Assembly: GCA_032622095.1 (NCBI GenBank)
Contig: CP136062.1
Location: forward strand, 158,404,875-158,468,874
Direction: 5' to 3'
Length of the DNA: 64,000 nucleotides
DNA from: Siphonodentalium dalli
Lineage: Eukaryota; Mollusca; Scaphopoda; Gadilida; Siphonodentaliidae
The position numbers were made by a program, and so were the translations under genes. Of the stretch, positions 8,381 to 31,985 are shown in pieces. The first letter of the stretch is position 1. Every line of letters starts with the position of its first letter. Below the pieces are notes generated by a model, which did not search any database, was not told where the DNA came from, and was given only the letters and a program-made list of their open reading frames with translations.

Positions 8381-8580
8381 GTAATATATGAATGGTTATT
8401 CTATAATTAATCATTTTAAGATGTATTTATGTTGTCTGCTAATTTTCATGAACCCAATTTTACACTTATCTAGTTTTGCTACATGTTAGACTCCATATTG
8501 TGTTTTATAGTTCCAGCCACTTCCTTTATTACAGCGGAGTTTGTCATTGACTGAAGCAGTGCGTGCATAAAGATACCCAT

Positions 8581-8770: not shown

Positions 8771-9462
8771 GTACACTTAATGAATTTATATCCCATGTTA
8801 GTAACATTCCCAACAAGCAGCAGTACAAAGCAGCAACACATTTGTTTATGAAACTTATTCGAAGAAACATGGCATTATTAAAAAAACACACTATTTTCTT
8901 TTAGTCACAATTCTATTGGAAAATATTTTAAAACGATAGCTTTTCGAACAAAAATGTAACCTTGACCAGGGTCACGTTGTCTTTTCGAAAATGGCCAAAA
9001 ACAATTTAATTTGGCCAAATTTTTGGCCTGTGTTTTTAAACCCAAATTCGGAAATTGATTTAAAAAAACACAAATTGATTTTGTAACGGGGGCGACATGA
9101 GAATCAAATTTATAGTATGATCATCTTCTAATTGATTGGGCGATACAGCTTAATGTGTAACACGTGGGCCACCAATTGCAATCACACATGTAATGTTTTA
9201 TGGTTTATAACGTACATACCAAAGTAAAGTTAAATAGCCAAAATAGATAATTTTGAACGTTAACAAGAGTTCCCATATTTTGAAACTGTTGAAATGACAC
9301 CGGAAGCGTCATCAGTTGCTAGCGCGTGATTCATGACTTCCTAAACGGTTGCCATGTTGATCCTTTTCGGCACTTAACTAGCAAGAAGGTATATGTACTA
9401 ATCAAGCTATGCCCCGGTCGTAGCCGTCGCATCCGGCTAAAATTACCGACAAGATCATGCTT

Positions 9463-10480
9463 ACGGGGAAGTTAACATTTTTGGGCCCAACCCATTCCCG
9501 TGTAGTTTCAGCAATTATTATAAGTTATTTTAGAAAACACCTTTATAGGTAATAAATCAGTAAGATATCATAGAAACATCATATCTATAATCAGTATAAC
9601 ATTTGTGACTCAATCACAGAAACATATCTATATTTAGTATAACTTTTGTGACTCAAAGTCAATGTCCGTCATGAAGTAATATTTATAGATGTTGTACATA
9701 ACATTTATTTGCAAGTCTTTACATTTTCCTGATGAATCTACAACACATCCGGCTTTCCAGAGTGGAAATTCCAATGATCATATTGCTAGAACGTTTGTAA
9801 ACAAACAGGTTGACGTGTCTTACAGCACGCAGATTGACATTTGTGTGATGAAATCCTATCCAAAAGAAGATAAAGTTGCTACATCCTTTAATGCGAAAGA
9901 GTCTAAACACATTGCCATCCTCATCAAAGGCGGTTATATGGTCTTTCATTTTTTGTGATGCCTTGTTTAAGGTTTAATTTGGAGAGGTCTTCCAGCGAGT
10001 AGTGATATGCGTCCACATTTACGTATATCAGTAAAGTATCCAACAACTTCCCGTGTCCAGGCGTTCATCTGCCAAATGAAAAAGGAAATTGTGTTGGCAT
10101 CTCATAAGTAAGAGGATAATTAGCAACAGGTGACCGATACAATTATGTTGGTCATCAGTAAATAAAAAGATATATCTAAAGATACCCGCTGGGTCGATTA
10201 GACGAGTAGTTGCAAGGTTCCATACCGCAAAATTTATAAGGATATCTAACTTGCCTGTAAAACAAGATATATATTTAAATGTGTACTTTGTGTTAAGTTG
10301 GGCGAGTAGTTACAAGGTTTAAATCATAGGATTTTTAATTTAAAAATAGATTATATAGTTAAAGTTTCGTTATTTCCATGTGGACGAGTAGTTACAAGGT
10401 TTTATCCCATAGATTATTTAATAAACATGTTCTGTGTTCTCACGGGAAGTTATCATTTTTGGGCCCAATTCATTCCCGTG
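9463..10480. repeat. Segment bounded by two 40-bp palindromic repeats
   Basis: A palindromic motif ACGGGAA ... TTTTTGGGCCCAA ... TTCCCGTGTAG occurs in the same orientation at 9463-9506 and 10441-10484. The second copy has a perfect 8-bp stem (CACGGGAA/TTCCCGTG). Between them are two copies of a 57-bp segment (about 9566-9660), a stretch with a paralogue at 13560-13830, and three copies of GACGAGTAGTTACAAGGTT-like sequence near 10202, 10300 and 10383. It could be a small mobile element with structured ends; no transposase is present. Confidence 0.5.
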
Positions 10481-10488
10481 TAGTTTTT

Positions 10489-13090
10489 AGCTCACCTGAG
10501 ACGAAGTCTCCGGTGGAGCTATAGTCATCACTCCTCGTCCGTCTGTCCGTCCGTCTGTCCGTCTGTCTGTACGTCCGTCTGCCCGTCCGTCAAGAATCAT
10601 CTTCTCCGCCAAAACTTTAAGACGGAACGGGTTCATATTTGGTGTGGATGTTCCATAGGTGAATCACATTCAGATTTGTTCAAATGAGGTCATCAAGTCA
10701 ATTAGTTGAGAAAGCAGGGCCACAACTCTATTCCTTCATAGTAATTCTTATAACGACTTTTTTCCAGAACTATTAGGCCGAATTGGTTCATATTTGGTAT
10801 GGATGTTCCCTAGGTGACTCACATTCAGATTTGTTCAAATGAGTCACCAGGTTGATTAGTTGAGAAACCAGGGCCATAACTCTTTCCCTCCATAGTAATT
10901 ATTTTAAACATCTTCTTCTCAAATACCATCAGGCCAAATGGGTTCATATTTGGTATGAAGGATCCTTGGTTGACTGGGGTTCAAATTTGTTCAAATGAGG
11001 TCACTGGGTCAAATGTGGGTGGGGCCAGGGACATAACTCAAAAATCAAAATTTCAGATTAAACTCTTTAACCAAAAAAGAAAAGAATAGAAAAGAAATGA
11101 TATATTAAAAAATAAAAGAATATTTAAAAACTGTGGAATTGTTTTTTTTATTAAAATATTTTAAAAAAAATAAAATAAATTGTATGCTTCTGCCACCATG
11201 GCCTGGTCCCAAAAATAAAATTTACTCAAATTCTTGACAGAATCATTAATAAGAAGCATTTACTTTGGCTGTAACTGTAAGTGCTGGTTATGCCTACACA
11301 ATCAAGTCAAATGAAATCTTGACATTTTTATAAACATTCCTTGCAGATCTGCTAGAAGTCATTAATTCCCAATCTACCATGTATTGTTGAAATCAGGACA
11401 AATAGCATGTCTGTCATTTGCAGAATGAGGTCTCCAGAGGGTGAATTTAGTGATGCTTTCCCGCACAGCGGCCTAGCATCACCAAATTCACCTTCTGGAG
11501 ACCTCATTCTGCTTAGGCCTCATCTTCTGGGAAGTATCTATAGTATCAAAATAACATTGTTGTTAGTTACATTTCCCTTCTTGGAAGTTTGTATATCCCC
11601 TAATTTGCAGAAGATAAATTCATAATTGAGGTGCCCAATGGGTGAACATCACCAACTTCAACTGGGGAACTTCAATCTTATCCTAGGTCTGCCATTGCAG
11701 TTGAGGCCCTTAGCAGAATGAGGTCCTCAGAGGGTGAATTTAGTGATGCTAGCCCGCTGTGCGGGATAGCGTCACTAAATTCACCCTCTGAGGACCTCAT
11801 TCTGCAAATGACAGACACACTATCACGCTATTTCAAGGCTTGATTGTATAATACATTGTGTTGCTTGAGGCCAGGCATGCACAATGTAGGAACAGACACG
11901 CTTTTAGTGATGCTATCCCGCACAGCGGGCTAGCATCACCAAATTCACCCTATGGAGACCTCATTCTGCTTAGGCCTCATCTTCTGGGAAGTATCTATAG
12001 TATAAAATTTACATTGTTGTTAGATAAATTTCCCTTCTAGGAAGTTTCTATATCCCCTAATTTGCAGAAGATAAAATTCATAATTGAGGTGCCCAATGTG
12101 TCAACATCACCAACTTCAACTGGGGAACTTCAATCTTATTCTAGGTCTTCCATAGCAGTTGAGGGCCTTAGCAGAATGAGGTCCCCAGAGGGTGAATTTA
12201 GTGATGCTAGCCTGCTGTGCGGGATAGCGTCACTAAATTCACCCTCTGGGGACCTCATTTTGCAAATGACAGACACACTATCACACTATTTCAAAGCTTG
12301 ATTGTATAATACATTGTGTTGCTTGAGGCCAGCATGCACAATGTAGGAACAGACAAGCCTTTTGTGATGCTATCCCGCACAGCGGGCTAGCATCACCAAA
12401 TTCACCCTCTGGAGACCTCATTCTGCTTAGGCCTCATCTTCTGTGAAGTATCTATAGTATCAAATTTACATTGTTGTTAGTTAAATTTCCCTTCTAGGAA
12501 GTTTCTATATCCCCTAATTTGCAGAAGATAAAATTCATAATTGTGGTGCCCAATGGGTGAATATCACCAACTTCAACTTGGGAACTTAAATATTATCCTT
12601 ATCAGATTGAAAATGGGATCAATAAGTCAAATAAGGGCAGAGCCAGAGACTTAACTATTTCTCTACATAGTAATTCTTAAAATATGTTTGCAAGAACTAG
12701 TTGGCTTATATAGCATGGAATGATCTTCCTTGACTGCAATTCAGATTTTTTCAAATGGGGTCACCTAGTCAAATAGGGGCCAAGCGAAGGACAGTTTCCC
12801 TCTTAGTATGCTTCCTTCACAAGGACCATCAGGTCTATTTTACTGATATTTATGATATGTATGAAGGGTTCTTTGGTGTCTGGGATTCAAATTTATTCAG
12901 ATGGGGTCACCAGGTTAAATAGGGTGGGGCCAGGTACATAACTATATGTCTCTATAGTAATTCTTAAAATGTCTTCTCAAGAGAGGTTGGACTATTTAGC
13001 TTACATACAGTATGGAGGAATCAGGAGGATCCTTTAGTGACTGAGATTCAGATTTGTTAAAATGAGGTCAACCTGTCAAGAAATGGCGGG
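10489..13090. mobile_element. Pearl-like bivalve repeat element, interrupted
   Basis: The element opens with a 32-bp hairpin (10489-10520; AGCTCACC-T-GAGAC loop GTCTC-C-GGTGGAGCT). Next come a CCGT/CTGT microsatellite (about 10533-10592) and tandem core repeats of about 150 bp, each containing variants of GGTTCATATTTGGTATGGAT, TCAGATTTGTTCAAATGAGG and CATAGTAATTCTTA. Core copies lie at about 10610-11050 and resume at about 12600-13090. This combination resembles the pearl family described in oysters. The gap between the two core blocks is filled by an AT-rich stretch and the hairpin cassette at 11408-12590. Confidence 0.65.
11408..12590. repeat. 458-bp tandem cassette with long palindromic hairpins
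   Basis: About two and a half units of 456-458 bp. Three complete 93-bp hairpins lie at 11420-11512, 11713-11805 and 12171-12263, and two left-truncated ones at about 11908-11971 and 12365-12427. Each complete hairpin has arms of about 45 bp starting GCAGAATGAGGTC, with a GC-rich inner stem (CCCGC/GCGGG in most copies) around a 3-base loop. The first two are mutually inverted, including the outer flank TGTCTGTCATTT, so they look like hairpin-shaped ends of an element of about 410 bp. No coding potential is evident. Confidence 0.8.
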
Positions 13091-13559
13091 CTATGGGGAG
13101 TTAACACTTTTGTGTCTAATAAAATCATTGAAATACCAAATTCATTAAAACATCTACCTTGGAACCACCTGACTGATTAGTCTGACATACATGTATTGTG
13201 TTTTGGGTCCATGGATAATTGGGCTTCAAACATGTCTAAATGGTTTTAGAAAAATGCGCTTCTGATATTGGAAATTTCCAATAATTGAGAAAGTTTGAGG
13301 TGTACTTGGGAGTCTGGAGCCCGGTCGGGAGGGGACTTGTTGAGCTGGAGGAGGGGGTGACCAGTAGAGTACAGTTGGTAATTTCAAGGTGATGTTTTCA
13401 CCCATATACATACTTGAAGTCTCTCTAGCCACATATCCTGTTTAAATCTACTTCTTTTAAAGTGATTATAAAAAGTGATGACTGTTGTGGTCTCCAGAGT
13501 CCCAGTCTTATCAGTCGTTGCAGTCTGGTGAGCGACCCCATAGTCATTGGCTGTCTTGT

Positions 13560-13830
13560 TATAATTATTATAAGTTGTTTTAGAAAACACCTCTATAGGT
13601 AATAAGAGTGGACATTCTGATGTTCATATTGCTAGAAGGTTTGTAAACAACCAGGTTGACGTGTCTTACTACACGCAGAATGACATTTGAGTGATGGAAT
13701 CCGATCCAAAAGAAGATAAATTTACTACCTCCTTTAATGCGAAAGAGTCTGAACATATTGTCATCTTCATCAAAGGCGGTCATATGGTCTTCAGGGTTTG
13801 CGATGTCTTGTTTAAGGTTTGATTTGGAGA
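13560..13830. repeat. Diverged paralogue of 9510-9960
   Basis: ATTATTATAAGTTGTTTTAG onward matches 9512 onward, but about 190 bp present in the first copy (roughly 9560-9752) is missing here. The remaining 190 bp aligns with about 10 to 15 percent substitutions. The + frame that is open in the first copy meets a TGA near 13687, so this is repeat sequence, not a conserved gene. Confidence 0.65.
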
Positions 13831-16800
13831 GGTGAGTAGTTAAGGGTCATGTCAAGTTCAACCAGCGTTTGTTCCAAAATTACCAACAACTGTTGTGCCA
13901 GACATGAACATTCCAACTGGTGGGTGCCAAAGCTGCGTGGGTTAGACACTTAGACACACCCAAAACACATCATATTCCCTGCCCCTAGTCCAGCGTACTA
14001 GAGATGCAGCTTAGTGCCATCAAGTCTTTTGAATTCCAGTTGTGTATAACTGAGATCTGTTTGCTGTGAACTATTGTCACTTCATCATCATTTTAGAGAT
14101 GCTAAGTCCGATTATAACACCTCCAAACTACTATTTTTCGGCTTCTGTGGTAAACAAAAGTTATATTTGATTCGAGGAACCCAACATTCAAAGATCAGAG
14201 CTACTAGATATCGATTATTGAAGTCTATTTATTTTCTACACCCCATATTCCATATATGGCGATAACCTTAACTGGAATTCCCCAGCACATGTTATCATAA
14301 ATGTTAATAAACATCTTTCACGTGTGATCGCCATGATATTGTACTTGGTTTATGTTGTGCCTAAAAATAACACTGGATCAGGAATAATTGAACAAATGTA
14401 CCCGATCGCCAGCTGTCAAAAGTTGGTGTCGCTTTTGTTTCTGGTAGACACTTTTGTCGGCTTTTTTCCGAAAATCTTTTCCGATCACAACAAAAAGAAA
14501 CATCACATGTCCATATATATCCGTTGGAATTTTTACCAAGTTAATACAAATTCGAGGTGTATAAAATAAATATATTTCGTTAATCGATACGTAATAGCTC
14601 TTAGCTTTGAAGGCGAATGCTTCGACTATAACAAGAAATATGTGTTCACCCCTAATGAGAAGAAATAGTAATGTATGGGTATTAAAAATGCCTAAAAATG
14701 ATCACTGGATCAGGAATAATTAAACAAATGTACCCGATTGCCAGCCGTCAAAATGTAGTGTCGCTTATGTTTCTGGTGAACATTTTCGTCGGCTTTTTTC
14801 TGAGAATCATTTCCGATCACCACTAAAAGAAACATCACATATCCGTATATATTTCCGTTGGAATTTTTACCAAGCTAATAAACATTTGAGGTGTATATAA
14901 TAAATACATTTCATTAAACGGACACCTAATAGCTCTTAGCTTTGAAGGGTGAGTCCTTCGACAATAACAAGAAATATTTGTTCACCCCTAATGAGAAGGA
15001 ATACTAATATAAGGGTACTAAATCTTGCAACGCACCTTTAACCATGACCCATGAGCAAGTTTCACATTATTAACCATATTAACATATCTAACATAGTTAC
15101 CTTCCCACAAATTATTCTAGACATTGATTCATGTCAATGTTTCCCCTATTCCAGAATCAACGAAATATGTTAGTTAAATCTCCCGATGACCATGTTAATT
15201 GCTTCGATTTTCTTCTGGAATTCCCCAGCACGTGTCATAATAAATGTAAATAAACATCTTTCACGTGTGATCGGCATGATATTGTTCTTGGCTTATGTTG
15301 TGCCTCAAATTATCACTGGATCAGGAATAAGCAACAAAATGTACCTGATTGCCAGCTATCAAAAGATAGTTTCGCTTTTGTTTCTGGTAGACATTTTCGT
15401 CGGCTTTTTTCCGAGAATCATTTCCTATCACCACTAAATGAAAATCACATATCCGTATATATTTCCGTTGGAATTTTTACCAAGCTAATAAAACTTTGAG
15501 GTTTATATAATAAATACATTTCATTAATCGGATACGTAATAGATCTTAGCTTTGAAGGGCGAGTCTTTCGACAATAACAAGAAATATTTGTTCACCCCTA
15601 ATGAGAAGGAAAAGTAATATAAGTGTACTAAATCAGACAAAGCATCTTTAACCATGAGCAAGTTTCACATTTTTAACCATATTAACAAATCTAGCATAGT
15701 TACCTTCCCACAAATTATTCTAGACATTGATTCATGTCAATGTCTCCAGATTACAGAATCAAAGAAAGTAGTTAGTTAAATCTCGCGATGATAATGTTGA
15801 TTCCTTCGATTTTTTCTTACTTCTGTTCAAAATTGAGACATAATCGTGGCATGAAAGTTCAATACGGAAAATCATGAAATATTGAGTTAAGGTTGGCGTC
15901 AAGTTCAACCAGCATTCCCAGATTACTAACAAAATTAATGTTGTGCCAAAGTTGGGTGGGTTAGACTCTTTCCAAACACATCATATCCCCATGTCCCTCG
16001 ACCAGCGTACTATGCATGTAGTTTAATGCCAGTATGTGTTTTGAATTCCAGCTGTGATAACTGAGATCTGTATGCTGTGAAATATTTGTCGCTTCATCGT
16101 CATTTTAGAGATACTTAGTCCGATATTATCACCTCCAATTTAATATGTTTCGGGTTCTGTTGTGAAAACACTGAAAAGTCTCATATGAGTGGAGGAACCC
16201 AACATTCAAAGCTCAGAGTTATTATAAATCGATTATTGACATCTATGTAGTTTATTCACCTCAAATTCCACTGGAATTCCCCAGCAATTATCAAAATATA
16301 TGTAAATAATACATATTCACTTGGGATCTTGTACTTGTTTTATAATGTGCCTAAAAATTATCACTGGATCAGGAATAATTGAACAAATGTACCCGATTGC
16401 CAGCCATCAAAAGGTAGTGTCGCTTTTGTTTCTGGTAGACATTTTCGTCGGCTTTTTTCCAACAATCATTTCCGATCACCACTAAATGAAACATCACATA
16501 TCCGTATATATTTCCGTTGGAATTTTTACCAAGCTAATAAATATTTGAGGTGTATATAATAAATACATTTCATTAAACGGATACCTAATAGCTCTTAGCT
16601 TTGAAGGGTGAGTCCTTCGACAATAACAAGAAATATTTGTTCACCCCTAATGAGAAGGAATAGTAATATAAGGGTACTAAATCTTGCAACGCACCTTTAA
16701 CCATGACCCATGAGCAAGTTTCACATTATTAACCATATTAACAAATCTAACATAGTTACCTTCCCACAAATTATTCTAGACATTGATTCATGTCAATGTT

Positions 16801-16873
16801 TCCCCTATTCCAGAATCAACGAAATATGTTAGTTAAATCTCCCGATGACCATGTTAATTGCTTCGATTTTCAG

Positions 16874-17044
16874 TGAATGGTAAGTGGACCCCCTGGGCAC
16901 GGTGGAGTCGATGTAACAAAAAATGTGGACGTGGAAGAAGGATCAGGAAAAGACGGTGTACGAACCCCGCCCCACGCTACGGTGGCAGAAGATGTCCAGG
17001 CAAAGCGTTGGTGTCAGGGGTGTGTAACTCCAAACCATGTCCAG
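16874..17044 (+). CDS. TSP1 exon, Z array copy 1
   Basis: 171 bp between acceptor GATTTTCAG and donor CAG|GTAATA. The first two bases (TG) complete a codon begun by the previous exon and the last base (G) begins one shared with the next, so copies join as ...KPCP-V-NGKW... The 57-residue module has Trp5, Trp8 and Trp11 (WTPWARW), Cys14, 18, 29, 41, 51 and 56, and a basic run GRGRRIRKRR at 19-28. It contains 17 Lys/Arg and no Asp/Glu. Such modules are extracellular and often bind glycosaminoglycans; the O-fucose Ser/Thr before Cys18 is replaced by Lys. The gene is unidentified. The reading frame also stays open for about 80 codons past the donor, to a TGA at 17284. Confidence 0.9.
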
Positions 17045-19304
17045 GTAATATATTACAATACGAATTAATCTTTAAACATATTATGAGAAAGAATCGGGCA
17101 ACAACGATAATTACACATATGTGTTCATTACGGTTCCGTTGTCGTTTGATACCTAAAGTTATTATCCGTTTTCTTATACTCGGTCTGGTTGCGTCGGTTA
17201 CGAGAGCTTCCAAATGTTATTGGTATTACTTCTGTTCACAATTGAGACATAATCGTGGCATGAAAGTTCAATGCGGCAAATCATGAATTATTGAGTTAAG
17301 TTTAACGTCAAGTTCAACCAGCATTCCCAAATTACTAACAAATGTTTTGACAAAGTTGGGTGGATTAGACACCTTCCAAACACATCATATTCCCATGTCC
17401 CTCGACCAGCGTACTGTAAATGTAGTTTAGTGCCAGTAAGTCTTTTGAATTCCAGCTGTGGTAATTGAGATATGTGTGCTGTGAAATATTTGTCGCATCA
17501 TAGAGATACCTAGTCGATTTCATCACCTCCAAATTAACATTTTTCGGGTTCTGTTGAGAAAAGTTTCATTTGAGTCGAGGAACCCAGCATTCAAAGCTCA
17601 GTGCTATTAGATATCGATCGTTGACATCTATGTAGTTTATTCATCTCAAATTCCACTGGAATTCCCCAGCAAGTGTCAAAATAAATGTAAATAAAACATA
17701 TGCATGTGGGATATTGTACTTGTTTTATGATATGCCTAAAAATGATCACTGGATCAGGAATAATTAAACAAATGTACCCGATTACCAGCCATCAAAATGT
17801 AGTGTCGCTTTTGTTTCTGGTAGACATTTTCGTCGGCTTTTTTCCGAGAATCATTTCCTATCACCACTAAATGAAAATCACATATCCGTATATATTTCCG
17901 TTGGAATTTTTTACCAAGCTAATACAACTTTGAGGTTTATATAATAAATACATTTCATTAATCGGATACGTAATAGCTCTTAGCTTTGAAGGGCGAGTCC
18001 TTCGACAATAACAAGAAATATTTGTTCACCCCTAATGAGAAGGAAAAGTAATATAAGTGTACTAAATCAGACAAAGCACCTTTAACCATGACCCATGAGC
18101 AAGTTTCACATTTTTAACCATATTAACAAATCTAGCATAGTTACCTTCCCACAAATTATTCTAGACATTGATTCATGTCAATGTCTCCAGATTACAGAAT
18201 CAAAGAAATAAGTTAGTTAAATCTCGCGATGACAATGTTGATTCCTTCGATTTTTTCTTACTTCTGTTCAAAATTGAGACATAATCGTGGCATGAAAGTT
18301 CAATACGGAAAATCATGAATTATTGAGTTAAGGTTGGTGTCAAGTTCAACCAGCATTCCCAGATTACTAACAAAATTAATGTTGTGCCAAAGTTGGTGGG
18401 TTAGACTCTTTCCAAACACATCTATCCCCATGTCCCTCGACCAGCGTACTGTGCATGTAGTTTAGTGTGTTTTGAATTCCAGCTGTGATAACTGAGATCT
18501 GTATGCTGTGAAATATTTGTCGCTTCATCGTCATTTTAGAGATACTTAGTCCGATATTATCACCTCCAATTTAATATGTTTCGGGTTCTGTTGTGAAAAC
18601 ACTGAAAAGTATGATATGTGTGGAGGAACCCAACATTCAAAGCTCAGAGTTATTATATATCGATTATTGACATCTATGTAGTTTATTCACCTCAAACTCC
18701 ACTGGAATTCCCCAGCAATTATCAAAATATATGTAAATGATACATATTCACGTGGGATCTTGTACTTGTTTTATAATGTGCCTAAAAATTATCACTGGAT
18801 CAGGAATAATTGAACAAATGTACCCGATTGCCAGCCATCAAAAGGTAGTGTCGCTTTTGTTTCTGGTAGACATTTTCGTCGGCTTTTTTCCGACAATCAT
18901 TTCCGATCACCACTAAATGAAACATCACATATCCGTATATATTTCCGTTGGAATTTTTACCAAGCTAATAACAAGTTGAGGTGTATATAATAAACACATT
19001 TCATTAAACGGACACCTAATAGCTCTTAGCTTTGAAGGGTGAGTCCTTCGACAATAACAAGAAATATTTGTTCACCCCTAATGAGAAGGAATACTAATAT
19101 AAGGGTACTAAATCTTGCAACGCACCTTTAACCATGACCCATGAGCAAGTTTCACATTATTAACCATATTAACATATCTAACATAGTTACCTTCCCACAA
19201 ATTATTCTAGACATTGATTCATGTCAATGTTTCCCCTATTCCAGAATCAACGAAATATGTTAGTTAAATCTCCCGATGACCATGTTAATTGCTTCGATTT
19301 TCAG

Positions 19305-19475
19305 TGAATGGTAAGTGGACCCCCTGGGCACGGTGGAGTCGATGTAACAAAAAATGTGGACGTGGAAGAATGATCAGGAAAAGACGGTGTACGAACCCCG
19401 CCCCACGCTACGGTGGCAGAAGATGTCCAGGCAAAGCGCTGGTGTCAGGGGTGTGTAACTCCAAACCATGTCCAG
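19305..19475 (+). CDS. TSP1 exon, Z array copy 2 (Arg23Met)
   Basis: Same exon boundaries and frame as copy 1. It carries AGG to ATG, changing Arg23 to Met in the basic run, the only replacement seen in the core of any Z module. Leu46 is CTG in place of TTG (silent). The preceding intron is 2260 bp. The Met variant recurs in the second 37-kb copy at 56474, so it predates that duplication. Confidence 0.9.
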
Positions 19476-21754
19476 GTAATATATTACAATACGAATTAAT
19501 CTTTAAACATATTATGAGAAAGAATCGGGCAACAACGATAATTACACATATGTGTTCATTACGGTTCCGTTGTCGTTTGATACCTAAAGTTATTATCCGT
19601 TTTCTTATACTCGGTCTGGTTGCGTTGGTTACGAGAGCTTCCAAATGTTATTGGTATTACTTCTGTTCACAATTGAGACATAATCGTGGCACGAAAGTTC
19701 AATGCGGCAAATCATGAATTATTGAGTTAAGTTTAACGTCAAGTTCAACCAGCATTCCCAAATTACTAACAAATGTTTTGACAAAGTTGGGTGGATTAGA
19801 CACCTTCCAAACACATCATATACCCATGTCCCTCGACCAGCGTACTGTGAATGTAGTTTAGTGCCAGTAAGTCTTTTGAATTCCAGCTGTGATAATTGAG
19901 ATCTGTGTGCTGTGAAATATTTGTCGCATCATCGTCATTTTAGAGATATGTAGTCGATTTCATCACCTCCAAATTAATATGTTTCGGGTTCTGTTGAGAA
20001 ACGTTTCATTTGAGTCGAGGAACCCAACATTCAAAGCTCAGTGCTAATAGATATCGATTATTGACATATATGTAGTTTATTCACCTCCAATTCCACTGGA
20101 ATTCCCCAGCACGTGTCATAATAAATGTAAATAAACATCTTTCACGTGTGATCGGCATGATATTGTTCTTGGCTTATGTTGTGCCTCAAATTATCACTGG
20201 ATCAGGAATAAGCAACAAAATGTACCTGATTGCCAGCTATCAAAAGATAGTTTCGCTTTTGTTTCTGGTAGACATTTTCGTCGGCTTTTTTCCGAGAATC
20301 ATTTCCTATCACCACTAAATGAAAATCACATATCCGTATATATTTCCGTTGGAATTTTTACCAAGCTAATAAAACTTTGAGGTTTATATAATAAATACAT
20401 TTCATTAATCGGATACGTAATAGCTCTTAGCTTTGAAGGGCGAGTCTTTCGACAATAACAAGAAATATTTGTTCACCCCTAATGAGAAGGAAAAGTAATA
20501 TAAGTGTACTAAATCAGACAAAGCACCTTTAACCATGAGCAAGTTTCACATTTTTAACCATATTAACAAATCTAGCATAATTACCTTCCCACAAATTATT
20601 CTAGACATTGATTCATGTCAATGTCTCCAGATTACAGAATCAAAGAAAGTAGTTAGTTAAATCTCGCGATGATAAAGCTGATTCCTTCGATTTTTTCTTA
20701 CTTCTGTTCAAAATTGAGACATAATCGTGGCATGAAAGTTCAATACGGAAAATCATGAACTATTGAGTTAAGGTTGGCGTCAAGTTCAACCAGCATTCCC
20801 AGATTACTAACACAATTAATGTTGTGCCAAAGTTGGGTGGGTTAGACTATGTCCAAACACATCATATCCCCATGTCCCTCGACCAGCGTACTCTGCATGT
20901 AGTTTAATGCCAGTATGTGTTTTGAATTCCAGCTGTGATAACTGAGATCTGTATGCTGTGAAATATTTGTCGCTTCATCGTCATTTTAGAGATACTTAGT
21001 CCGATATTATCACCTCCAATTTAATATGTTTCGGGTTCTGTTGTGAAAACACTGAAAAGTCTCATATGAGTGGAGGAACCCAACATTCAAAGCTCAGAGT
21101 TATTATAAATCGATTATTGACATCTATGTAGTTTATTCACCTCAAATTCCACTGGAATTCCCCAGCAATTATCAAAATATATGTAAATAATACATATTCA
21201 CTTGGGATCTTGTACTTGTTTTATAATGTGCCTAAAAATTATCACTGGATCAGGAATAATTGAACAAATGTACCCGATTGCCAGCCATCAAAAGGTAGTG
21301 TCGCTTTTGTTTCTGGTAGACATTTTCGTCGGCTTTTTTCCAACAATCATTTCCGATCACCACTAAATGAAACATCACATATCCGTATATATTTCCGTTG
21401 GAATTTTTACCAAGCTAATAAATATTTGAGGTGTATATAATAAATACATTTCATTAAACGGATACCTAATAGCTCTTAGCTTTGAAGGGTGAGTCCTTCG
21501 ACAATAACAAGAAATATTTGTTCACCCCTAATGAGAAGGAATAGTAATATAAGGGTACTAAATCTTGCAACGCACCTTTAACCATGACCCATGAGCAAGT
21601 TTCACATTATTAACCATATTAACAAATCTAACATAGTTACCTTCCCACAAATTATTCTAGACATTGATTCATGTCAATGTTTCCCCTATTCCAGAATCAA
21701 CGAAATATGTTAGTTAAATCTCCCGATGACCATGTTAATTGCTTCGATTTTCAG

Positions 21755-21925
21755 TGAATGGTAAGTGGACCCCCTGGGCACGGTGGAGTCGATGTAACAA
21801 AAAATGTGGACGTGGAAGAAGAATCAGGAAAAGACGGTGTACGAACCCCGCCCCACGCTACGGTGGCAGAAGATGTCCAGGCAAAGCGTTGGTGTCAGGG
21901 GTGTGTAACTCCAAACCATGTCCAG
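21755..21925 (+). CDS. TSP1 exon, Z array copy 3
   Basis: Protein identical to copy 1. The one distinguishing base is AGG to AGA at Arg23 (silent), giving GAAGAAGAATCAGG. Its surrounding unit shares the short exon-less half and the CATAGAGATACC deletion with copy 1, so copies 1 and 3 belong to one subtype, and copies 2 and 4 to another, in a 4.88-kb super-period. Confidence 0.9.
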
Positions 21926-24186
21926 GTAATATATTACAATACGAATTAATCTTTAAACATATTATGAGAAAGAATCGGGCAACAACGATAATTACACATA
22001 TGTGTTCATTACGGTTCCGTTGTCGTTTGATACCTAAAGTTATTATCCGTTTTCTTATACTCGGTCTGGTTGCGTCGGTTACGAGAGCTTCCAAATGTTA
22101 TTGGTATTACTTCTGTTCACAATTGAGACATAATCGTGGCATGAAAGTTCAATGCGGCAAATCATGAATTATTGAGTTAAGTTTAACGTCAAGTTCAACC
22201 AGCATTCCCAAATTACTAACAAATGTTTTGACAAAGTTGGGTGGATTAGACACCTTCCAAACACATCATATTCCCATGTCCCTCGACCAGCGTACTGTGA
22301 ATGTAGTTTAGTGCCAGTAAGTCTTTTGAATTCCAGCTGTGGTAATTGAGATATGTGTGCTGTGAAATATTTGTCGCATCATAGAGATACCTAGTCGATT
22401 TCATCACCTCCAAATTAACATTTTTCGGGTTCTGTTGAGAAAAGTTTCATTTGAGTCGAGGAACCCAGCATTCAAAGCTCAGTGCTATTAGATATCGATC
22501 GTTGACATCTATGTAGTTTATTCATCTCAAATTCCACTGGAATTCCCCAGCAAGTGTCAAAATAAATGTAAATAAAACATATGCATGTGGGATATTGTAC
22601 TTGTTTTATGATATGCCTAAAAATGATCACTGGATCAGGAATAATTAAACAAATGTACCCGATTACCAGCCATCAAAATGTAGTGTCGCTTTTGTTTCTG
22701 GTAGACATTTTCGTCGGCTTTTTTCCGAGAATCATTTCCTATCACCACTAAATGAAAATCACATATCCGTATATATTTCCGTTGGAATTTTTTACCAAGC
22801 TAATACAACTTTGAGGTTTATATAATAAATACATTTCATTAATCGGATACGTAATAGCTCTTAGCTTTGAAGGGCGAGTCCTTCGACAATAACAAGAAAT
22901 ATTTGTTCACCCCTAATGAGAAGGAAAAGTAATATAAGTGTACTAAATCAGACAAAGCACCTTTAACCATGACCCATGAGCAAGTTTCACATTTTTAACC
23001 ATATTAACAAATCTAGCATAGTTACCTTCCCACAAATTATTCTAGACATTGATTCATGTCAATGTCTCCAGATTACAGAATCAAAGAAATAAGTTAGTTA
23101 AATCTCGCGATGACAATGTTGATTCCTTCGATTTTTTCTTACTTCTGTTCAAAATTGAGACATAATCGTGGCATGAAAGTTCAATACGGAAAATCATGAA
23201 TTATTGAGTTAAGGTTGGTGTCAAGTTCAACCAGCATTCCCAGATTACTAACAAAATTAATGTTGTGCCAAAGTTGGGTGGGTTAGACTCTTTCCAAACA
23301 CATCTATCCCCATGTCCCTCGACCAGCGTACTGTGCATGTAGTTTAGTGTGTTTTGAATTCCAGCTGTGATAACTGAGATCTGTATGCTGTGAAATATTT
23401 GTCGCTTCATCGTCATTTTAGAGATACTTAGTCCGATATTATCACCTCCAATTTAATATGTTTCGGGTTCTGTTGTGAAAACACTGAAAAGTATGATATG
23501 TGTGGAGGAACCCAACATTCAAAGCTCAGAGTTATTATATATCGATTATTGACATCTATGTAGTTTATTCACCTCAAACTCCACTGGAATTCCCCAGCAA
23601 TTATCAAAATATATGTAAATGATACATATTCACGTGGGATCTTGTACTTGTTTTATAATGTGCCTAAAAATTATCACTGGATCAGGAATAATTGAACAAA
23701 TGTACCCGATTGCCAGCCATCAAAAGGTAGTGTCGCTTTTGTTTCTGGTAGACATTTTCGTCGGCTTTTTTCCGACAATCATTTCCGATCACCACTAAAT
23801 GAAACATCACATATCCGTATATATTTCCGTTGGAATTTTTACCAAGCTAATAACAAGTTGAGGTGTATATAATAAATACATTTCATTAAACGGACACCTA
23901 ATAGCTCTTAGCTTTGAAGGGTGAGTCCTTCGACAATAACAAGAAATATTTGTTCACCCCTAATGAGAAGGAATACTAATATAAGGGTACTAAATCTTGC
24001 AACGCACCTTTAACCATGACCCATGAGCAAGTTTCACATTATTAACCATATTAACATATCTAACATAGTTACCTTCCCACAAATTATTCTAGACATTGAT
24101 TCATGTCAATGTTTCCCCTATTCCAGAATCAACGAAATATGTTAGTTAAATCTCCCGATGACCATGTTAATTGCTTCGATTTTCAG

Positions 24187-24357
24187 TGAATGGTAAGTGG
24201 ACCCCCTGGGCACGGTGGAGTCGATGTAACAAAAAATGTGGACGTGGAAGAAGGATCAGGAAAAGACGGTGTACGAACCCCGCCCCACGCTACGGTGGCA
24301 GAAGATGTCCAGGCAAAGCGCTGGTGTCAGGGGTGTGTAACTCCAAACCATGTCCAG
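24187..24357 (+). CDS. TSP1 exon, Z array copy 4
   Basis: Protein identical to copy 1, with Leu46 as CTG. Its unit otherwise resembles that of copy 2 but has Arg23, so either copy 2 gained Met after their split or this copy was corrected. The donor, acceptor and read-through frame are unchanged. Confidence 0.9.
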
Positions 24358-26636
24358 GTAATATATTACAATACGAATTAATCTTTAAACATATTATGAG
24401 AAAGAATCGGGCAACAACGATAATTACACATATGTGTTCATTACGGTTCCGTTGTCGTTTGATACCTAAAGTTATTATCCGTTTTCTTATACTCGGTCTG
24501 GTTGCGTTGGTTACGAGAGCTTCCAAATGTTATTGGTATTACTTCTGTTCACAATTGAGACATAATCGTGGCATGAAAGTTCAATGCGGCAAATCATGAA
24601 TTATTGAGTTAAGTTTAACGTCAAGTTCAACCAGCATTCCCAAATTACTAACAAATGTTTTGACAAAGTTGGGTCGATTAGACACCTTCCAAACACATCA
24701 TATACCCATGTCCCTCGACCAGCGTACTGTGAATGTAGTTTAGTGCCAGTAAGTCTTTTGAATTCCAGCTGTGATAATTGAGATCTGTGTGCTGTGAAAT
24801 ATTTGTCGCATCATCGTCATTTTAGAGATATGTAGTCGATTTCATCACCTCCAAATTAATATGTTTCGGGTTCTGTTGAGAAACGTTTCATTTGAGTCGA
24901 GGAACCCAACATTCAAAGCTCAGTGCTAATAGATATCGATTATTGACATATATGTAGTTTATTCACCTCCAATTCCACTGGAATTCCCCAGCACGTGTCA
25001 TAATAAATGTAAATAAACATCTTTCACGTGTGATCGGCATGATATTGTTCTTGGCTTATGTTGTGCCTCAAATTATCACTGGATCAGGAATAAGCAACAA
25101 AATGTACCTGATTGCCAGCTATCAAAAGATAGTTTCGCTTTTGTTTCTGGTAGACATTTTCGTCGGCTTTTTTCCGAGAATCATTTCCTATCACCACTAA
25201 ATGAAAATCACATATCCGTATATATTTCCGTTGGAATTTTTACCAAGCTAATAAAACTTTGAGGTTTATATAATAAATACATTTCATTAATCGGATACGT
25301 AATAGCTCTTAGCTTTGAAGGGCGAGTCTTTCGACAATAACAAGAAATATTTGTTCACCCCTAATGAGAAGGAAAAGTAATATAAGTGTACTAAATCAGA
25401 CAAAGCACCTTTAACCATGAGCAAGTTTCACATTTTTAACCATATTAACAAATCTAGCATAGTTACCTTCCCACATATTATTCTAGACATTGATTCATGT
25501 CAATGTCTCCAGATTACAGAATCAAAGAAAGTAGTTAGTTAAATCTCGCGATGATAAAGCTGATTCCTTCGATTTTTTCTTACTTCTGTTCAAAATTGAG
25601 ACATAATCGTGGCATGAAAGTTCAATACGGAAAATCATGAACTATTGAGTTAAGGTTGGCGTCAAGTTCAACCAGCATTCCCAGATTACTAACACAATTA
25701 ATGTTGTGCCAAAGTTGGGTGGGTTAGACTATGTCCAAACACATCATATCCCCATGTCCCTCGACCAGCGTACTCTGCATGTAGTTTAATGCCAGTATGT
25801 GTTTTGAATTCCAGCTGTGATAACTGAGATCTGTATGCTGTGAAATATTTGTCGCTTCATCGTCATTTTAGAGATACTTAGTCCGATATTATCACCTCCA
25901 ATTTAATATGTTTCGGGTTCTGTTGTGAAAACACTGAAAAGTCTCATATGAGTGGAGGAACCCAACATTCAAAGCTCAGAGTTATTATAAATCGATTATT
26001 GACATCTATGTAGTTTATTCACCTCAAATTCCACAGGAATTCCCTAGCAATTATCAAAATATATGTAAATAATACATATTCACTTGGGATCTTGTACTTG
26101 TTTTATAATGTGCCTAAAAATTATCACTGGATCAGGAATAATTGAACAAATGTACCCGATTGCCAGCCATCAAAAGGTAGTGTCGCTTTTGTTTCTGGTA
26201 GACATTTTCGTCGGCTTTTTTCCAACAATCATTTCCGATCACCACTAAATGAAACATCACATATCCGTATATATTTCCGTTGGAATTTTTACCAAGCTAA
26301 TAACAATTTGAGGTGTATATAATAAATACATTTCATTAAACGGACACCTAATAGCTCTTAGCTTTGAAGGGTGAGTCCTTCGACAATAACAAGAAATATT
26401 TGTTCACCCCTAATGAGAAGGAATACTAATATAAGGGTACTAAATCTTGCAACGCACCTTTAACCATGACCCATGAGCAAGTTTCACATTATTAACCATA
26501 TTAACATATCTAACATAGTTACCTTCCCACAAATTATTCTAGACATTGATTCAGGTCAATGTTTCCCCTATTCCAGAATCAACGAAATATGTTAGTTAAA
26601 TCTCCCGATGACCATGTTAATTGCTTCGATTTTCAG

Positions 26637-26807
26637 TGAATGGTAAGTGGACCCCCTGGGCACGGTGGAGTCGATGTAACAAAAAATGTGGACGTGGAAG
26701 AAGGATCAGGAAAAGACGGTGTACGAACCCCGCCCCACGCTACGGTGGCAGAAGATGTCCAGGCAAAGCGCTGGTGTCAGGGGTGTGTAACTCCAAACCA
26801 TGTCCAG
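26637..26807 (+). CDS. TSP1 exon, Z array copy 5
   Basis: Exon sequence identical to copy 4. The flanking unit carries private variants (TCAGGTCAATG near 26551; ACAGGAATTCCCTAGC near 26035) shared only with copy 6, which marks a very recent duplication of a whole 2450-bp unit. Confidence 0.9.
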
Positions 26808-29086
26808 GTAATATATTACAATACGAATTAATCTTTAAACATATTATGAGAAAGAATCGGGCAACAACGATAATTACACATATGTGTTCATTACGGTTCC
26901 GTTGTCGTTTGATACCTAAAGTTATTATCCGTTTTCTTATACTCGGTCTGGTTGCGTCGGTTACGAGAGCTTCCAAATGTTATTGGTATTACTTCTGTTC
27001 ACAATTGAGACATAATCGTGGCATGAAAGTTCAATGCGGCAAATCATGAATTATTGAGTTAAGTTTAACGTCAAGTTCAACCAGCATTCCCAAATTACTA
27101 ACAAATGTTTTGACAAAGTTGGGTGGATTAGACACCTTCCAAACACATCATATTCCCATGTCCCTCGACCAGCGTACTGTGAATGTAGTTTAGTGCCAGT
27201 AAGTCTTTTGAATTCCAGCTGTGATAATTGAGATCTGTGTGCTGTGAAATATTTGTCGCATCATCGTCATTTTAGAGATATGTAGTCGATTTCATCACCT
27301 CCAAATTAATATGTTTCGGGTTCTGTTGAGAAACGTTTCATTTGAGTCGAGGAACCCAACATTCAAAGCTCAGTGCTAATAGATATCGATTATTGACATA
27401 TATGTAGTTTATTCACCTCCAATTCCACTGGAATTCCCCAGCACGTGTCATAATAAATGTAAATAAACATCTTTCACGTGTGATCGGCATGATATTGTTC
27501 TTGGCTTATGTTGTGCCTCAAATTATCACTGGATCAGGAATAAGCAACAAAATGTACCTGATTGCCAGCTATCAAAAGATAGTTTCGCTTTTGTTTCTGG
27601 TAGACATTTTCGTCGGCTTTTTTCCGAGAATCATTTCCTATCACCACTAAATGAAAATCACATATCCGTATATATTTCCGTTGGAATTTTTACCAAGCTA
27701 ATAAAACTTTGAGGTTTATATAATAAATACATTTCATTAATCGGATACGTAATAGCTCTTAGCTTTGAAGGGCGAGTCTTTCGACAATAACAAGAAATAT
27801 TTGTTCACCCCTAATGAGAAGGAAAAGTAATATAAGTGTACTAAATCAGACAAAGCACCTTTAACCATGAGCAAGTTTCACATTTTTAACCATATTAACA
27901 AATCTAGCATAGTTACCTTCCCACATATTATTCTAGACATTGATTCATGTCAATGTCTCCAGATTACAGAATCAAAGAAAGTAGTTAGTTAAATCTCGCG
28001 ATGATAAAGCTGATTCCTTCGATTTTTTCTTACTTCTGTTCAAAATTGAGACATAATCGTGGCATGAAAGTTCAATACGGAAAATCATGAACTATTGAGT
28101 TAAGGTTGGCGTCAAGTTCAACCAGCATTCCCAGATTACTAACACAATTAATGTTGTGCCAAAGTTGGGTGGGTTAGACTATGTCCAAACACATCATATC
28201 CCCATGTCCCTCGACCAGCGTACTCTGCATGTAGTTTAATGCCAGTATGTGTTTTGAATTCCAGCTGTGATAACTGAGATCTGTATGCTGTGAAATATTT
28301 GTCGCTTCATCGTCATTTTAGAGATACTTAGTCCGATATTATCACCTCCAATTTAATATGTTTCGGGTTCTGTTGTGAAAACACTGAAAAGTCTCATATG
28401 AGTGGAGGAACCCAACATTCAAAGCTCAGAGTTATTATAAATCGATTATTGACATCTATGTAGTTTATTCACCTCAAATTCCACAGGAATTCCCTAGCAA
28501 TTATCAAAATATATGTAAATAATACATATTCACTTGGGATCTTGTACTTGTTTTATAATGTGCCTAAAAATTATCACTGGATCAGGAATAATTGAACAAA
28601 TGTACCCGATTGCCAGCCATCAAAAGGTAGTGTCGCTTTTGTTTCTGGTAGACATTTTCGTCGGCTTTTTTCCAACAATCATTTCCGATCACCACTAAAT
28701 GAAACATCACATATCCGTATATATTTCCGTTGGAATTTTTACCAAGCTAATAACAATTTGAGGTGTATATAATAAATACATTTCATTAAACGGACACCTA
28801 ATAGCTCTTAGCTTTGAAGGGTGAGTCCTTCGACAATAACAAGAAATATTTGTTCACCCCTAATGAGAAGGAATACTAATATAAGGGTACTAAATCTTGC
28901 AACGCACCTTTAACCATGACCCATGAGCAAGTTTCACATTATTAACCATATTAACATATCTAACATAGTTACCTTCCCACAAATTATTCTAGACATTGAT
29001 TCAGGTCAATGTTTCCCCTATTCCAGAATCAACGAAATATGTTAGTTAAATCTCCCGATGACCATGTTAATTGCTTCGATTTTCAG

Positions 29087-29257
29087 TGAATGGTAAGTGG
29101 ACCCCCTGGGCACGGTGGAGTCGATGTAACAAAAAATGTGGACGTGGAAGAAGGATCAGGAAAAGACGGTGTACGAACCCCGCCCCACGCTACGGTGGCA
29201 GAAGATGTCCAGGCAAAGCGCTGGTGTCAGGGGTGTGTAACTCCAAACCATGTCCAG
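29087..29257 (+). CDS. TSP1 exon, Z array copy 6
   Basis: Exon identical to copies 4 and 5. It is the sister of copy 5 by its flanks and lies exactly 2450 bp downstream of it. Confidence 0.9.
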
Positions 29258-31536
29258 GTAATATATTACAATACGAATTAATCTTTAAACATATTATGAG
29301 AAAGAATCGGGCAACAACGATAATTACACATATGTGTTCATTACGGTTCCGTTGTCGTTTGATACCTAAAGTTATTATCCGTTTTCTTATACTCGGTCTG
29401 GTTGCGTCGGTTACGAGAGCTTCCAAATGTTATTGGTATTACTTCTGTTCACAATTGAGACATAATCGTGGCATGAAAGTTCAATGCGGCAAATCATGAA
29501 TTATTGAGTTAAGTTTAACGTCAAGTTCAACCAGCATTCCCAAATTACTAACAAATGTTTTGACAAAGTTGGGTGGATTAGACACCTTCCAAACACATCA
29601 TATTCCCATGTCCCTCGACCAGCGTACTGTGAATGTAGTTTAGTGCCAGTAAGTCTTTTGAATTCCAGCTGTGATAATTGAGATCTGTGTGCTGTGAAAT
29701 ATTTGTCGCATCATCGTCATTTTAGAGATATGTAGTCGATTTCATCACCTCCAAATTAATGTGTTTCGGGTTCTGTTGAGAAACGTTTCATTTGAGTCGA
29801 GGAACCCAACATTCAAAGCTCAGTGCTAATATATATCGATTATTGACATATATGTAGTTTATTCACCTCCATTTCCACTGGAATTCCCCAGCACGTTTCA
29901 TAATAAATGTAAATAAACATCTTTCACGTGTGATCGGCATGATATTGTTCTTGGCTTATGTTGTGCCTCAAATTATCACTGGATCAGGAATAAGCAACAA
30001 AATGTACCTGATTGCCAGCTATCAACAGATAGTTTCGCTTTTGTTTCTGGTAGACATTTTCGTCGGCTTTTTTCCGAGAATCATTTCCTATCACCACTAA
30101 ATGAAAATCACATATCCGTTTATATTTCCGTTGGAATTTTTACCAAGCTAATAAAACTTTGAGGTTTATATAATAAATACATTTCATTAATCGGATACGT
30201 AATAGCTCTTAGCTTTGAAGGGCGAGTCTTTCGACAATAACAAGAAATATTTGTTCACCCCTAATGAGAAGGAAAAGTAATATAAGTGTACTAAATCAGA
30301 CAAAGCACCTTTAACCATGAGCAAGTTTCACATTTTTAACCATATTAACAAATCTAGCATAGTTACCTTCCCACAAATTATTCTAGACATTGATTCATGT
30401 CAATGTCTCCAGATTACAGAATCAAAGAAAGTAGTTAGTTAAATCTCGCGATGATAATGCTGATTCCTTCGATTTTTTCTTACTTCTGTTCAAAATTGAG
30501 ACATAATCGTGGCATGAAAGTTCAATACGGAAAATCATGAAATATTGAGTTAAGGTTGGCGTCAAGTTCAACCAGCATTCCCAGATTACTAACAAAATTA
30601 ATGTTGTGCCAAAGTTGGGTGGGTTAGACTATGTCCAAACACATCATATCCCCATGTCCCTCGACCAGCGTACTCTGCATGTAGTTTAATGCCAGTATGT
30701 GTTTTGAATTCCAGCTGTGATAACTGAGATCTGTATGCTGTGAAATATTTGTCGCTTCATCGTCATTTTAGAGATACTTAGTCCGATATTATCACCTCCA
30801 ATTTAATATGTTTCGGGTTCTGTTGTGAAAACACTGAAAAGTCTCATATGAGTGGAGGAACCCAACATTCAAAGCTCAGAGTTATTATAAATCGATTATT
30901 GACATCTATGTAGTTTATTCACCTCAAATTCCACTGGAATTCCCCAGCAATTATCAAAATATATGTAAATAATACATATTCACTTGGGATCTTGTACTTG
31001 TTTTATAATGTGCCTAAAAATTATCACTGGATCAGGAATAATTGAACAAATGTACCCGATTGCCAGCCATCAAAAGGTAGTGTCGCTTTCGTTTCTGGTA
31101 GACATTTTCGTCGGCTTTTTTCCAACAATCATTTCCGATCACCACTAAATGAAACATCACATATCCGTATATATTTCCGTTGGAATTTTTACCAAGCTAA
31201 TAAATATTTGAGGTGTATATAATAAATACATTTCATTAAACGGATACCTAATAGCTCTTAGCTTTGAAGGGTGAGTCCTTCGACAATAACAAGAAATATT
31301 TGTTCACCCCTAATGAGAAGGAATAGTAATATAAGGGTACTAAATCTTGCAACGCACCTTTAACCATGACCCATGAGCAAGTTTCACATTATTAACCATA
31401 TTAACAAATCTAACATAGTTACCTTCCCACAAATTATTCTAGACATTGATTCATGTCAATGTTTCCCCTATTCCAGAATCAACGAAATATGTTAGTTAAA
31501 TCTCCCGATGACCATGTTAATTGCTTCGATTTTCAG

Positions 31537-31707
31537 TGAATGGTAAGTGGACCCCCTGGGCACGGTGGAGTCGATGTAACAAAAAATGTGGACGTGGAAG
31601 AAGGATCAGGAAAAGACGGTGTACGAACCCCGCCCCACGCTACGGTGGCAGAAGATGTCCAGGCAAAGCGTTGGTGTCAGGGGTGTGTAACTCCAAACCA
31701 TGTGCAG
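31537..31707 (+). CDS. TSP1 exon, Z array copy 7 (last of the array)
   Basis: Same boundaries as the other copies. The last full codon is GCA, so Pro57 becomes Ala (KPCA), as in family X; Leu46 is TTG. About 15 bp after the donor the intron stops matching the array, so this exon marks the array's edge. The read-through frame beyond the donor is therefore different and short (stop near 31749). Confidence 0.9.
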
Positions 31708-31985
31708 GTAATATATCACATTGGCAAACATTATTATTATATGCAATTTGATGAAGAAGCCTAAAATTGGTCTCGGTTTTATTACACCGTGGTCCAGATC
31801 TGTAGATTAAAAGAGGTCATTTGTGGCATTGTCCCATTTCATGTCCATGTCATAAAACATGGTAATCGTTATCGGCTTTTTTTCGATCATTGCAAGTCAT
31901 GGACATTTTTTTCCTATGGCTTTGCCAGAAACATGACTATATGAGCGTATATGAGCGTATATGACCAAGGACACGGTCGCATGCG

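What the first reader, a model, noticed from the sequence alone, without database searches (positions are those of the whole stretch)
13845..31720. Within-gene amplification of a single TSP1 exon as a higher-order repeat
Seven near-identical 171-bp TSP1 exons sit in a 2.43-2.45-kb repeat made of an exon-bearing and an exon-less half-unit, with a 4.88-kb super-period at the start and a very recent 2450-bp duplication near the end. Satellite-like dynamics are acting on protein-coding modules inside what looks like one gene. Copy number could differ between individuals and set the length of the protein.
Basis: seen in the sequence. Interest (0 to 1): 0.85.

Follow-up and report, generated by a model that had tools for sequence, protein, structure and literature searches.

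The report
Self-multiplying protein-module exons in tandem
A single small protein-module exon (thrombospondin type 1) in an unnamed animal genome has been multiplied by the same step-wise copying that builds satellite DNA, inside a larger 37-kb repeat, so the number of modules changes quickly; whether the array makes protein is not yet shown.

Summary
Seven Z exons (171 nt, phase 1-1, Pfam TSP_1) sit in a 2.43-2.45-kb repeat of one exon-bearing and one exon-less half-unit, with a 4.88-kb super-period. The array is one level of a nested series: a 1.31-kb monomer with exon; a 2.44-kb dimer in which one monomer lost its exon by a single shared deletion (30 of 30 exon-less half-units); a 4.88-kb tetramer; the 37-kb unit. 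Paralogous units carry 2, 5, 7, 7 and 7 Z exons; three pieces 55 Mb away hold 0, 1 and 1, probably the state before amplification. 'One gene whose length varies' is only partly supported: 38 of 41 TSP1 exons examined keep splice sites and frame, but the other three are copies of the S exon, which has an in-frame TGA in 8 of 8 copies found. No convincing start exon was found in the unit, recent changes show no clear purifying selection, and no transcripts were available. Closest precedents: human NBPF/Olduvai higher-order repeats and LPA kringle IV-2. New variant of a known kind.

The parts
15215..31720 (+). Regular Z array: alternating exon-bearing and exon-less half-units
   Evidence: self-BLAST, half-unit segmentation, dimer comparisons
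13850..15214 (+). Diverged array seed; its homologue at 214 Mb runs straight into a single Z exon
16874..17044 (+). Z exon 1, 171 nt, phase 1-1, TSP1
19305..19475 (+). Z exon 2 (R to M)
21755..21925 (+). Z exon 3
24187..24357 (+). Z exon 4
26637..26807 (+). Z exon 5
29087..29257 (+). Z exon 6
31537..31707 (+). Z exon 7, last, P to A at its end; following intron differs
17229..18260 (+). Exon-less half-unit, 1032-bp class
19660..20700 (+). Exon-less half-unit, 1041-bp class
22110..23141 (+). Exon-less half-unit, 1032-bp class
24542..25582 (+). Exon-less half-unit, 1041-bp class
26992..28032 (+). Exon-less half-unit, 1041-bp class
29442..30482 (+). Exon-less half-unit, 1041-bp class
25583..30482 (+). 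Two successive 2450-bp dimers, 8 differences
1..82 (+). 3' part of the V exon of the preceding unit
8210..8380 (+). Y exon, TSP1, 171 nt
36473..36643 (+). S exon: TSP1 exon with in-frame TGA at a conserved Trp position; splice sites present
37083..37253 (+). V exon, TSP1
1..21751 (+). 37,171-bp tandem duplication, first copy
   Evidence: 99.55% to 37172-58910
37172..58910 (+). 37,171-bp tandem duplication, second copy
45379..45549 (+). Y exon of the second unit
54043..54213 (+). Z exon 1 of the second unit
56474..56644 (+). Z exon 2 of the second unit
57870..58916 (+). Extra exon-less half-unit (1047 bp) beside another exon-less one; gives the 3417-bp Z spacing
59891..60061 (+). Z exon 3 of the second unit
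62341..62511 (+). Z exon 4 of the second unit (the fifth lies beyond the window)

Best explanation
This is a higher-order tandem repeat built on one phase 1-1 TSP1 exon and its introns. Shown by sequence: (1) in three pieces of a paralogous locus at 214 Mb there are 1, 0 and 1 Z exons; (2) elsewhere at 158 Mb a 1.31-kb monomer with one related exon (Z') is tandemly repeated; (3) a single deletion of about 0.35 kb, taking acceptor, exon, donor and following intron, is shared by all exon-less half-units, and exon-bearing and exon-less monomers alternate as a dimer; (4) dimers alternate in two kinds, a 4.88-kb tetramer; (5) the whole block with Y, S and V exons is repeated as a 37-kb tandem unit, and array lengths differ between units. 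Inferred: the order of these steps; that the copying is unequal exchange between long intronic homologies; that symmetric exon phase lets module number change without a frameshift. Inferred, less sure: the exons belong to a long TSP1-repeat gene for a secreted, strongly basic protein, and the S exon is skipped or marks a decayed part.
For: Half-units: within a length class 98.4-99.9% alike; exon-less 1032 vs 1041 class 95.0%; exon-bearing vs exon-less 89-91% (94% for the single 1047-bp one); Z' monomers vs the rest 87-90%. All 30 exon-less half-units end in the same deletion join. Monomer array with exon, seven copies, at C2:158016411-158025587. The 214-Mb seed is 95-96% alike and runs into one Z exon. 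Z counts: B 2, C 7, D 7, E 7, F 5. Three tandem units D, E, F (37.6, 37.2 and 33.2 kb from V to V) and a tail lie in 131,675 bases without N. 38 of 41 TSP1 exons there have AG/GT, length 3n and no stop. More TSP1-like repeats follow on the same strand, at 2.66-kb and then 7.45-kb spacing.
Against: S exon TGA in 8 of 8 copies found. Among Z exons 5 replacement and 3 silent variants; omega near 1 for Z vs Zl (1.18) and Z vs V (1.07), and above 1 for Z and V against their 214-Mb copies (2.72 and 2.44, few changes). Between Z units the exon varies no less than its immediate flanks (0.0058 vs 0.0057 and 0.0076), though less than the five blocks further upstream (0.010-0.019). The two exon-bearing classes are only about 1.8% apart, and E's last two dimers group with the 1401-bp class, so the tetramer is less regular at its end. 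No RNA. 100-N gaps at C2:158043029 and 158768687, so lengths in those flanks are uncertain.
Confidence: 0.72

Rival explanations
1. Decaying or never-transcribed segmental duplication: the Z exons are passengers of a DNA-level tandem repeat in a pseudogene region. The working gene, if any, starts downstream of the last S exon.
For: TGA in S in 8 of 8 copies found, two of them with a further break of frame; relics that look like exon 3' ends at 33196-33219 and 35620-35639; omega near 1 for Z vs Zl and Z vs V; the array holds about one exon-less monomer for each exon-bearing one.
Against: 38 of 41 TSP1 exons keep splice sites and frame; some older comparisons show constraint (Z vs Y omega 0.29, V vs Zl 0.40, V vs Y 0.48); Z' exons lost one Cys and gained another, as if the fold were kept.
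Confidence: 0.35
2. Each 37-kb unit is its own gene (Y, seven Z, ending at the stop in S), a tandem array of genes rather than one gene.
For: The S exon with its stop closes each unit; the order V-Y-Z(n)-S-V repeats. A relaxed scan for a signal-peptide exon in 31700-46000 gave 14 overlapping rows, against 0 and 2 in two reverse-strand stretches.
Against: The strict scan of the same stretch found none, and no row of the relaxed scan has a donor above 2.5, while Z, Y and V donors score 3.5-4.0.
Confidence: 0.15
3. Assembly artefact: haplotypes or mis-joined reads placed in tandem.
For: 100-N gaps at 158043029 and 158768687; 4,486 bp at 100% between 158009316 and 158315500; a near-identical second stretch after the gap at 158768687; sequence after the gap at 158043029 matches 157.75-157.77 Mb at 99-100%; a flank copy at 160.83 Mb, 98%.
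Against: The window and its neighbours are gap-free over 131,675 bases with three tandem units whose aligned parts are 0.3-1.7% apart, more copies than two haplotypes can give; the dimers of the finding are told apart by 6-77 differences per pair.
Confidence: 0.08

Closest known systems
Human NBPF 3-mer higher-order repeats (Olduvai triplets), PMC9584774 (passages and outline read)
   Same: Exon-bearing monomers of kb size inside genes, arranged as a higher-order repeat; low divergence between HOR copies, higher between monomers.
   Different: Each NBPF consensus monomer holds two exons; 3-mer of about 1.6-kb monomers, 17-19% apart. Here a 4-mer in which two of four monomers lost the exon by one deletion, the two exon-bearing monomers are only about 1.8% apart, the module is TSP1, and there is a further 37-kb tandem level.
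LPA kringle IV type 2 coding VNTR, PMC11462820 (passages read)
   Same: Kb-size repeat units carrying exons of one protein module, near-identical copies, module number variable.
   Different: KIV-2 unit is 5.6 kb with two exons; its variation (1 to about 40) and effect on Lp(a) are established there. Here neither variation between individuals nor expression is shown.
Alpha-satellite higher-order repeats (as mentioned in PMC9584774; otherwise recalled)
   Same: Monomers grouped in a multimer that is homogenised as a unit.
   Different: 171-bp centromeric monomers; here monomers are 1.0-1.4 kb and half carry an exon.
TSP1-repeat proteins: thrombospondin-1, properdin (PDB 7yyk, 9u62)
   Same: Tandem TSP1 modules; best solved relatives of Z by sequence.
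   Different: Z is far more basic: net +17 per module vs +1 and 0 for human TSP1 TSR2 and TSR3.

Membership tests
TSP1 domain (Pfam PF00090) | Profile match above gathering score | tested here: met
   Z 43, Y 39.8, V 54.6 bits vs cut-off 21.6
TSP1 domain (Pfam PF00090) | Three Trp and six Cys in register (pattern recalled) | tested here: met
   Z, Y, V, Zl: W 5, 8, 11; C 14, 18, 29, 41, 51, 56, the Cys positions of human TSP1 TSR3
Higher-order repeat | Divergence between copies of the multimer lower than between its monomers | tested here: met
   0.1-1.6% within a class; 5.0% between the two exon-less classes, 9-11% between exon-bearing and exon-less; but only about 1.8% between the two exon-bearing classes
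Higher-order repeat | Fixed order of monomer classes repeated in tandem | tested here: met
   1409-1032-1400-1041 order repeats in C, D and E, with departures at the end of E and in F
Coding VNTR (like LPA KIV-2) | Unit number differs between alleles | tested here: inconclusive
   Differs between paralogous units and between two near-identical stretches; no population data
Coding VNTR (like LPA KIV-2) | Repeats are spliced into one mRNA | not testable with these tools
   No transcriptome held
Coding VNTR (like LPA KIV-2) | Units keep frame and splice sites | tested here: met
   All 19 Z exons among the 41 exons examined; 3 of 3 S exons there have the stop. Outside that stretch, 3 of 6 Z copies in region A have a 1-base insertion near a contig end

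The most novel reading that the evidence does not exclude
A live coding higher-order repeat in which satellite-type exchange, acting on a unit that carries an exon-less monomer beside the exon-bearing one, sets within a species the number of polycationic TSP1 modules in a giant secreted protein. The two near-identical stretches (99.8-99.97% where compared) with different numbers of exon units (5.4-kb, 2.66-kb and 7.45-kb units) would then be two alleles of one animal, with module number turning over far faster than point mutation.
Probability: 0.25. Interest if true: 0.72.

Novelty: new variant of a known kind. Interest (0 to 1): 0.5.

Why it matters
Coding higher-order repeats are known to me chiefly from human NBPF genes. 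A second case, in another animal, with what look like the intermediate stages (single copy, monomer array, exon-loss dimer, tetramer, 37-kb unit) still in one genome, lets one read how protein-repeat length may be set by DNA-level exchange. The exon-less monomers also suggest that the array grew at least partly for DNA reasons and not only because selection wanted more modules.

Tried and rejected
Signal-peptide exon in each unit: the strict scan of 31700-46000 found none. The relaxed scan gave 14 overlapping rows there, none with a donor above 2.5, against 0 and 2 in two reverse-strand stretches; 1 row in the tail (158470000-158486000) and 1 row upstream of the locus (157998269-157998356, donor 3.1), which could be a first exon but was not followed up. 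The donor matrix was typed from recall and is rough.

Frameshifts in the last three Z copies of region A (C2:158037620, 158040053, 158042487) as biological decay: not used as evidence. They are three different 1-base insertions; by my reading of the alignment each lengthens a run of like bases. They lie within 5.5 kb of a contig end, so sequence error is as likely.

Half-unit as a dispersed transposable element: every match listed for the intron probes lies in the 158-Mb and 214-Mb loci, but only 40 of 327 and 40 of 2302 candidates were scored, so dispersed copies are not excluded.

Purifying selection on recent Z copies: not shown.

False duplication of contig ends: unresolved. Sequence just after the gap at 158043029 matches 157.75-157.77 Mb (99-100%), as an unpurged overlap would. 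Against it, the last 2,087 bases before the gap at 158768687 showed no full-length second copy among 40 scored of 8,542 candidates, and a flank lies at 160.83 Mb at 98%, split by an insertion. I did not fetch 158047000-158295499, 158299000-158315499, 158330500-158343799, 158363800-158367199 or 158518875-158693999, so further gaps there are possible.

Molluscan haemocyanin as a clue to phylum: no match, but the control rang nowhere either, so no conclusion. Species unknown.

Papers: seven searches were seen as listings; none listed a description of TSP1-exon higher-order repeats. This covers only the held open-access library and those terms. Of two papers (PMC9584774, PMC11462820) I read passages only, plus the outline of the first.
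Full report
The window is C2:158404875-158468874 of a 2.227-Gb genome in nine sequences.

OBSERVATION. Z exon 1 is 16874-17044: AG before, GT after, 171 nt, phase 1 at both ends, so copies join in frame. It matches Pfam TSP_1 (E = 5e-11, 43 bits), and its best solved relatives by sequence are thrombospondin-1 and properdin. Seven copies lie in 16874-31707 at 98.9-100% identity. Cutting the array at a conserved motif gives alternating half-units: 1409 with exon, 1032 without, 1399-1400 with exon, 1041 without. Dimers 1 and 3 differ at 7 of 2441 bases, 2 and 4 at 6, 5 and 6 at 8 of 2450, but 1 and 2 at 74 plus gaps. So the 4.88-kb super-period and the late 2450-bp duplication are both real and of similar age.

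Positions 1-21751 and 37172-58910 are 99.55% identical: a 37,171-bp tandem unit with exon order V, Y, Z(n), S, V. Four more Z exons lie in the second unit inside the window and a fifth just outside. The DNA search for Z listed 40 matches (40 of 94 candidates scored): 39 in 158.03-158.78 Mb and one at 214.06 Mb. By unit: B 2 (its left side differs from the other units), C 7, D 7, E (the finding) 7, F 5, and after the gap at 158768687 G 5 with F's spacing; region A has 3 intact and 3 with a 1-base insertion. Three 10-kb pieces at 214 Mb hold 1, 0 and 1; the stretches between them were not fetched. A probe from the V-Y intron, itself mostly a dispersed repeat, shows four copies printed as 100% (C, D, E, F) and two at 96% (the tail and its copy after the gap) in this locus.

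HOW IT AROSE. I compared 68 of 75 half-units (the 7 of G were left out because G nearly equals F), sorted into 14 length classes. Within a class identity is 98.4-99.9%. The 1409 and 1399/1400 exon-bearing classes are 98.1-98.2% alike, the 1032 and 1041 exon-less classes 95.0%, exon-bearing against exon-less 89-91% (94% for the single 1047-bp one), Z' monomers against the others 87-90%. In the tree the two 1409-bp half-units of E's last dimers group with the 1401-bp class. All 30 exon-less half-units share one deletion join, removing acceptor, exon, donor and following intron, about 0.35 kb (one search missed seven of them because of one base in my motif; one 1401-bp half-unit of region A that one search flagged exon-less in fact holds a Z exon with an insertion and is not counted). 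A tandem array of seven 1300-1333-bp monomers, each with a related exon Z', lies at C2:158016411-158025587. The 214-Mb seed, 95-96% identical to window 13976-15212, runs directly into one Z exon. I read this as: single exon, monomer array, dimer with one exon lost, tetramer, 37-kb unit. The order is inferred from structure, not from a rooted species comparison.

SPEED OF CHANGE. F and the stretch after the gap at C2:158768687 (G) are 99.97% identical over 8,713 bp (3 mismatches), 99.95% over 5,478 bp and 99.80% over 17,300 bp. Yet G lacks one copy of a 5.4-kb [Zl, Zl, V, Y] block (positions), has about 16 kb more before S (positions; break), and has 9 against 12 copies of a downstream unit with two TSP1-like hits (their splice sites were not checked). 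Whether G is an allele, a recent duplicate or an assembly redundancy is open.

IS IT A GENE? For: in the gap-free 158367200-158498874, 41 TSP1 exons were examined and 38 have AG/GT, length divisible by three and no stop, all on the plus strand. More TSP1-like hits follow on the same strand. Some older comparisons show constraint (Z vs Y omega 0.29, V vs Zl 0.40, V vs Y 0.48). In Z' one Cys is lost and another gained near the start, which resembles the difference between group 1 and group 2 TSP1 modules (recalled, not tested). Against: S has TGA at a conserved Trp in 8 of 8 copies found, and the two 214-Mb copies have a further break. The S donor scores lower than the Z, Y or V donors on my rough matrix (1.2 vs 3.5-4.0). 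Among 31 Z exons there are 5 replacement and 3 silent variants, while sites are about 127 to 38; too few to decide. Z vs Zl and Z vs V have omega near 1; Z and V against their 214-Mb copies have more replacement than silent change (4.5 vs 0.5, 8 vs 1). Between Z units the exon (0.0058) is no more conserved than its immediate flanks (0.0057, 0.0076), though the blocks further upstream vary more (0.010-0.019). No RNA was available.

FUNCTION. If translated, Z modules carry net +17 charge each with no acidic residue, against +1 and 0 for human TSP1 TSR2 and TSR3. Seven in a row would be a strong polycation, so binding to sulfated glycans or mucus is the natural guess (inference).

AGAINST KNOWN SYSTEMS. 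NBPF 3-mers (about 4.77 kb, three 1.6-kb monomers with two exons each, about 1-1.6% between copies and 17-19% between monomers; PMC9584774, passages read) are the nearest precedent that I found for a coding higher-order repeat. LPA KIV-2 (5.6-kb units, 1 to about 40; PMC11462820, passages read) is the nearest for a module-number polymorphism. What differs here is the exon-less monomer inside the amplified unit, the TSP1 module and the outer 37-kb level. Hence: new variant of a known kind.

Noticed in passing
C2:158506934-158570577 (L021, L022): Downstream of the tail, a unit with two TSP1-like hits repeats first at about 2.66 kb and then at about 7.45 kb, 12 copies; the stretch after the 158768687 gap has 9 (40 of 43 candidates scored).
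   Followed up: partly
window 36473-36643 and its copies: S exon carries TGA at the third Trp of the WxxWxxW motif in 8 of 8 copies found; skipping, decay, read-through or RNA editing cannot be told apart without RNA.
   Followed up: partly
L010-L012 (C2:158010225-158035361): Z' exons lost the third Cys and gained one near the start, like a switch between the two TSP1 disulfide groups (group names recalled).
   Followed up: no
window 33196-33219 and 35620-35639: Short relics that look like the 3' ends of lost TSP1 exons, one with a broken donor (read by eye).
   Followed up: no
window 5200-6100 and 42369-43269: Dispersed repeat, mostly 83-89% to copies on other chromosomes, carried along in the 37-kb units.
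   Followed up: partly
window 1502-2047 (-) and 38671-39216 (-): 181-aa open frame on the minus strand; the first copy has no Pfam match.
   Followed up: no
window 11446-12599 and 48615-49768: 457-bp tandem repeat, 2.5 copies, in both copies of the 37-kb unit in the window.
   Followed up: no
C6:43192658-43196621 and C6:43236567-43238732: Other regular TSP1-exon ladders, periods about 1263 and 498 bp, on another sequence of the genome.
   Followed up: no
C2:157750792-157770079 and 158043199-158050292: About 4.8-kb tandem repeat just after the gap at 158043029, 99-100% to a stretch 0.28 Mb upstream; suggests an unpurged contig overlap or a duplication.
   Followed up: partly
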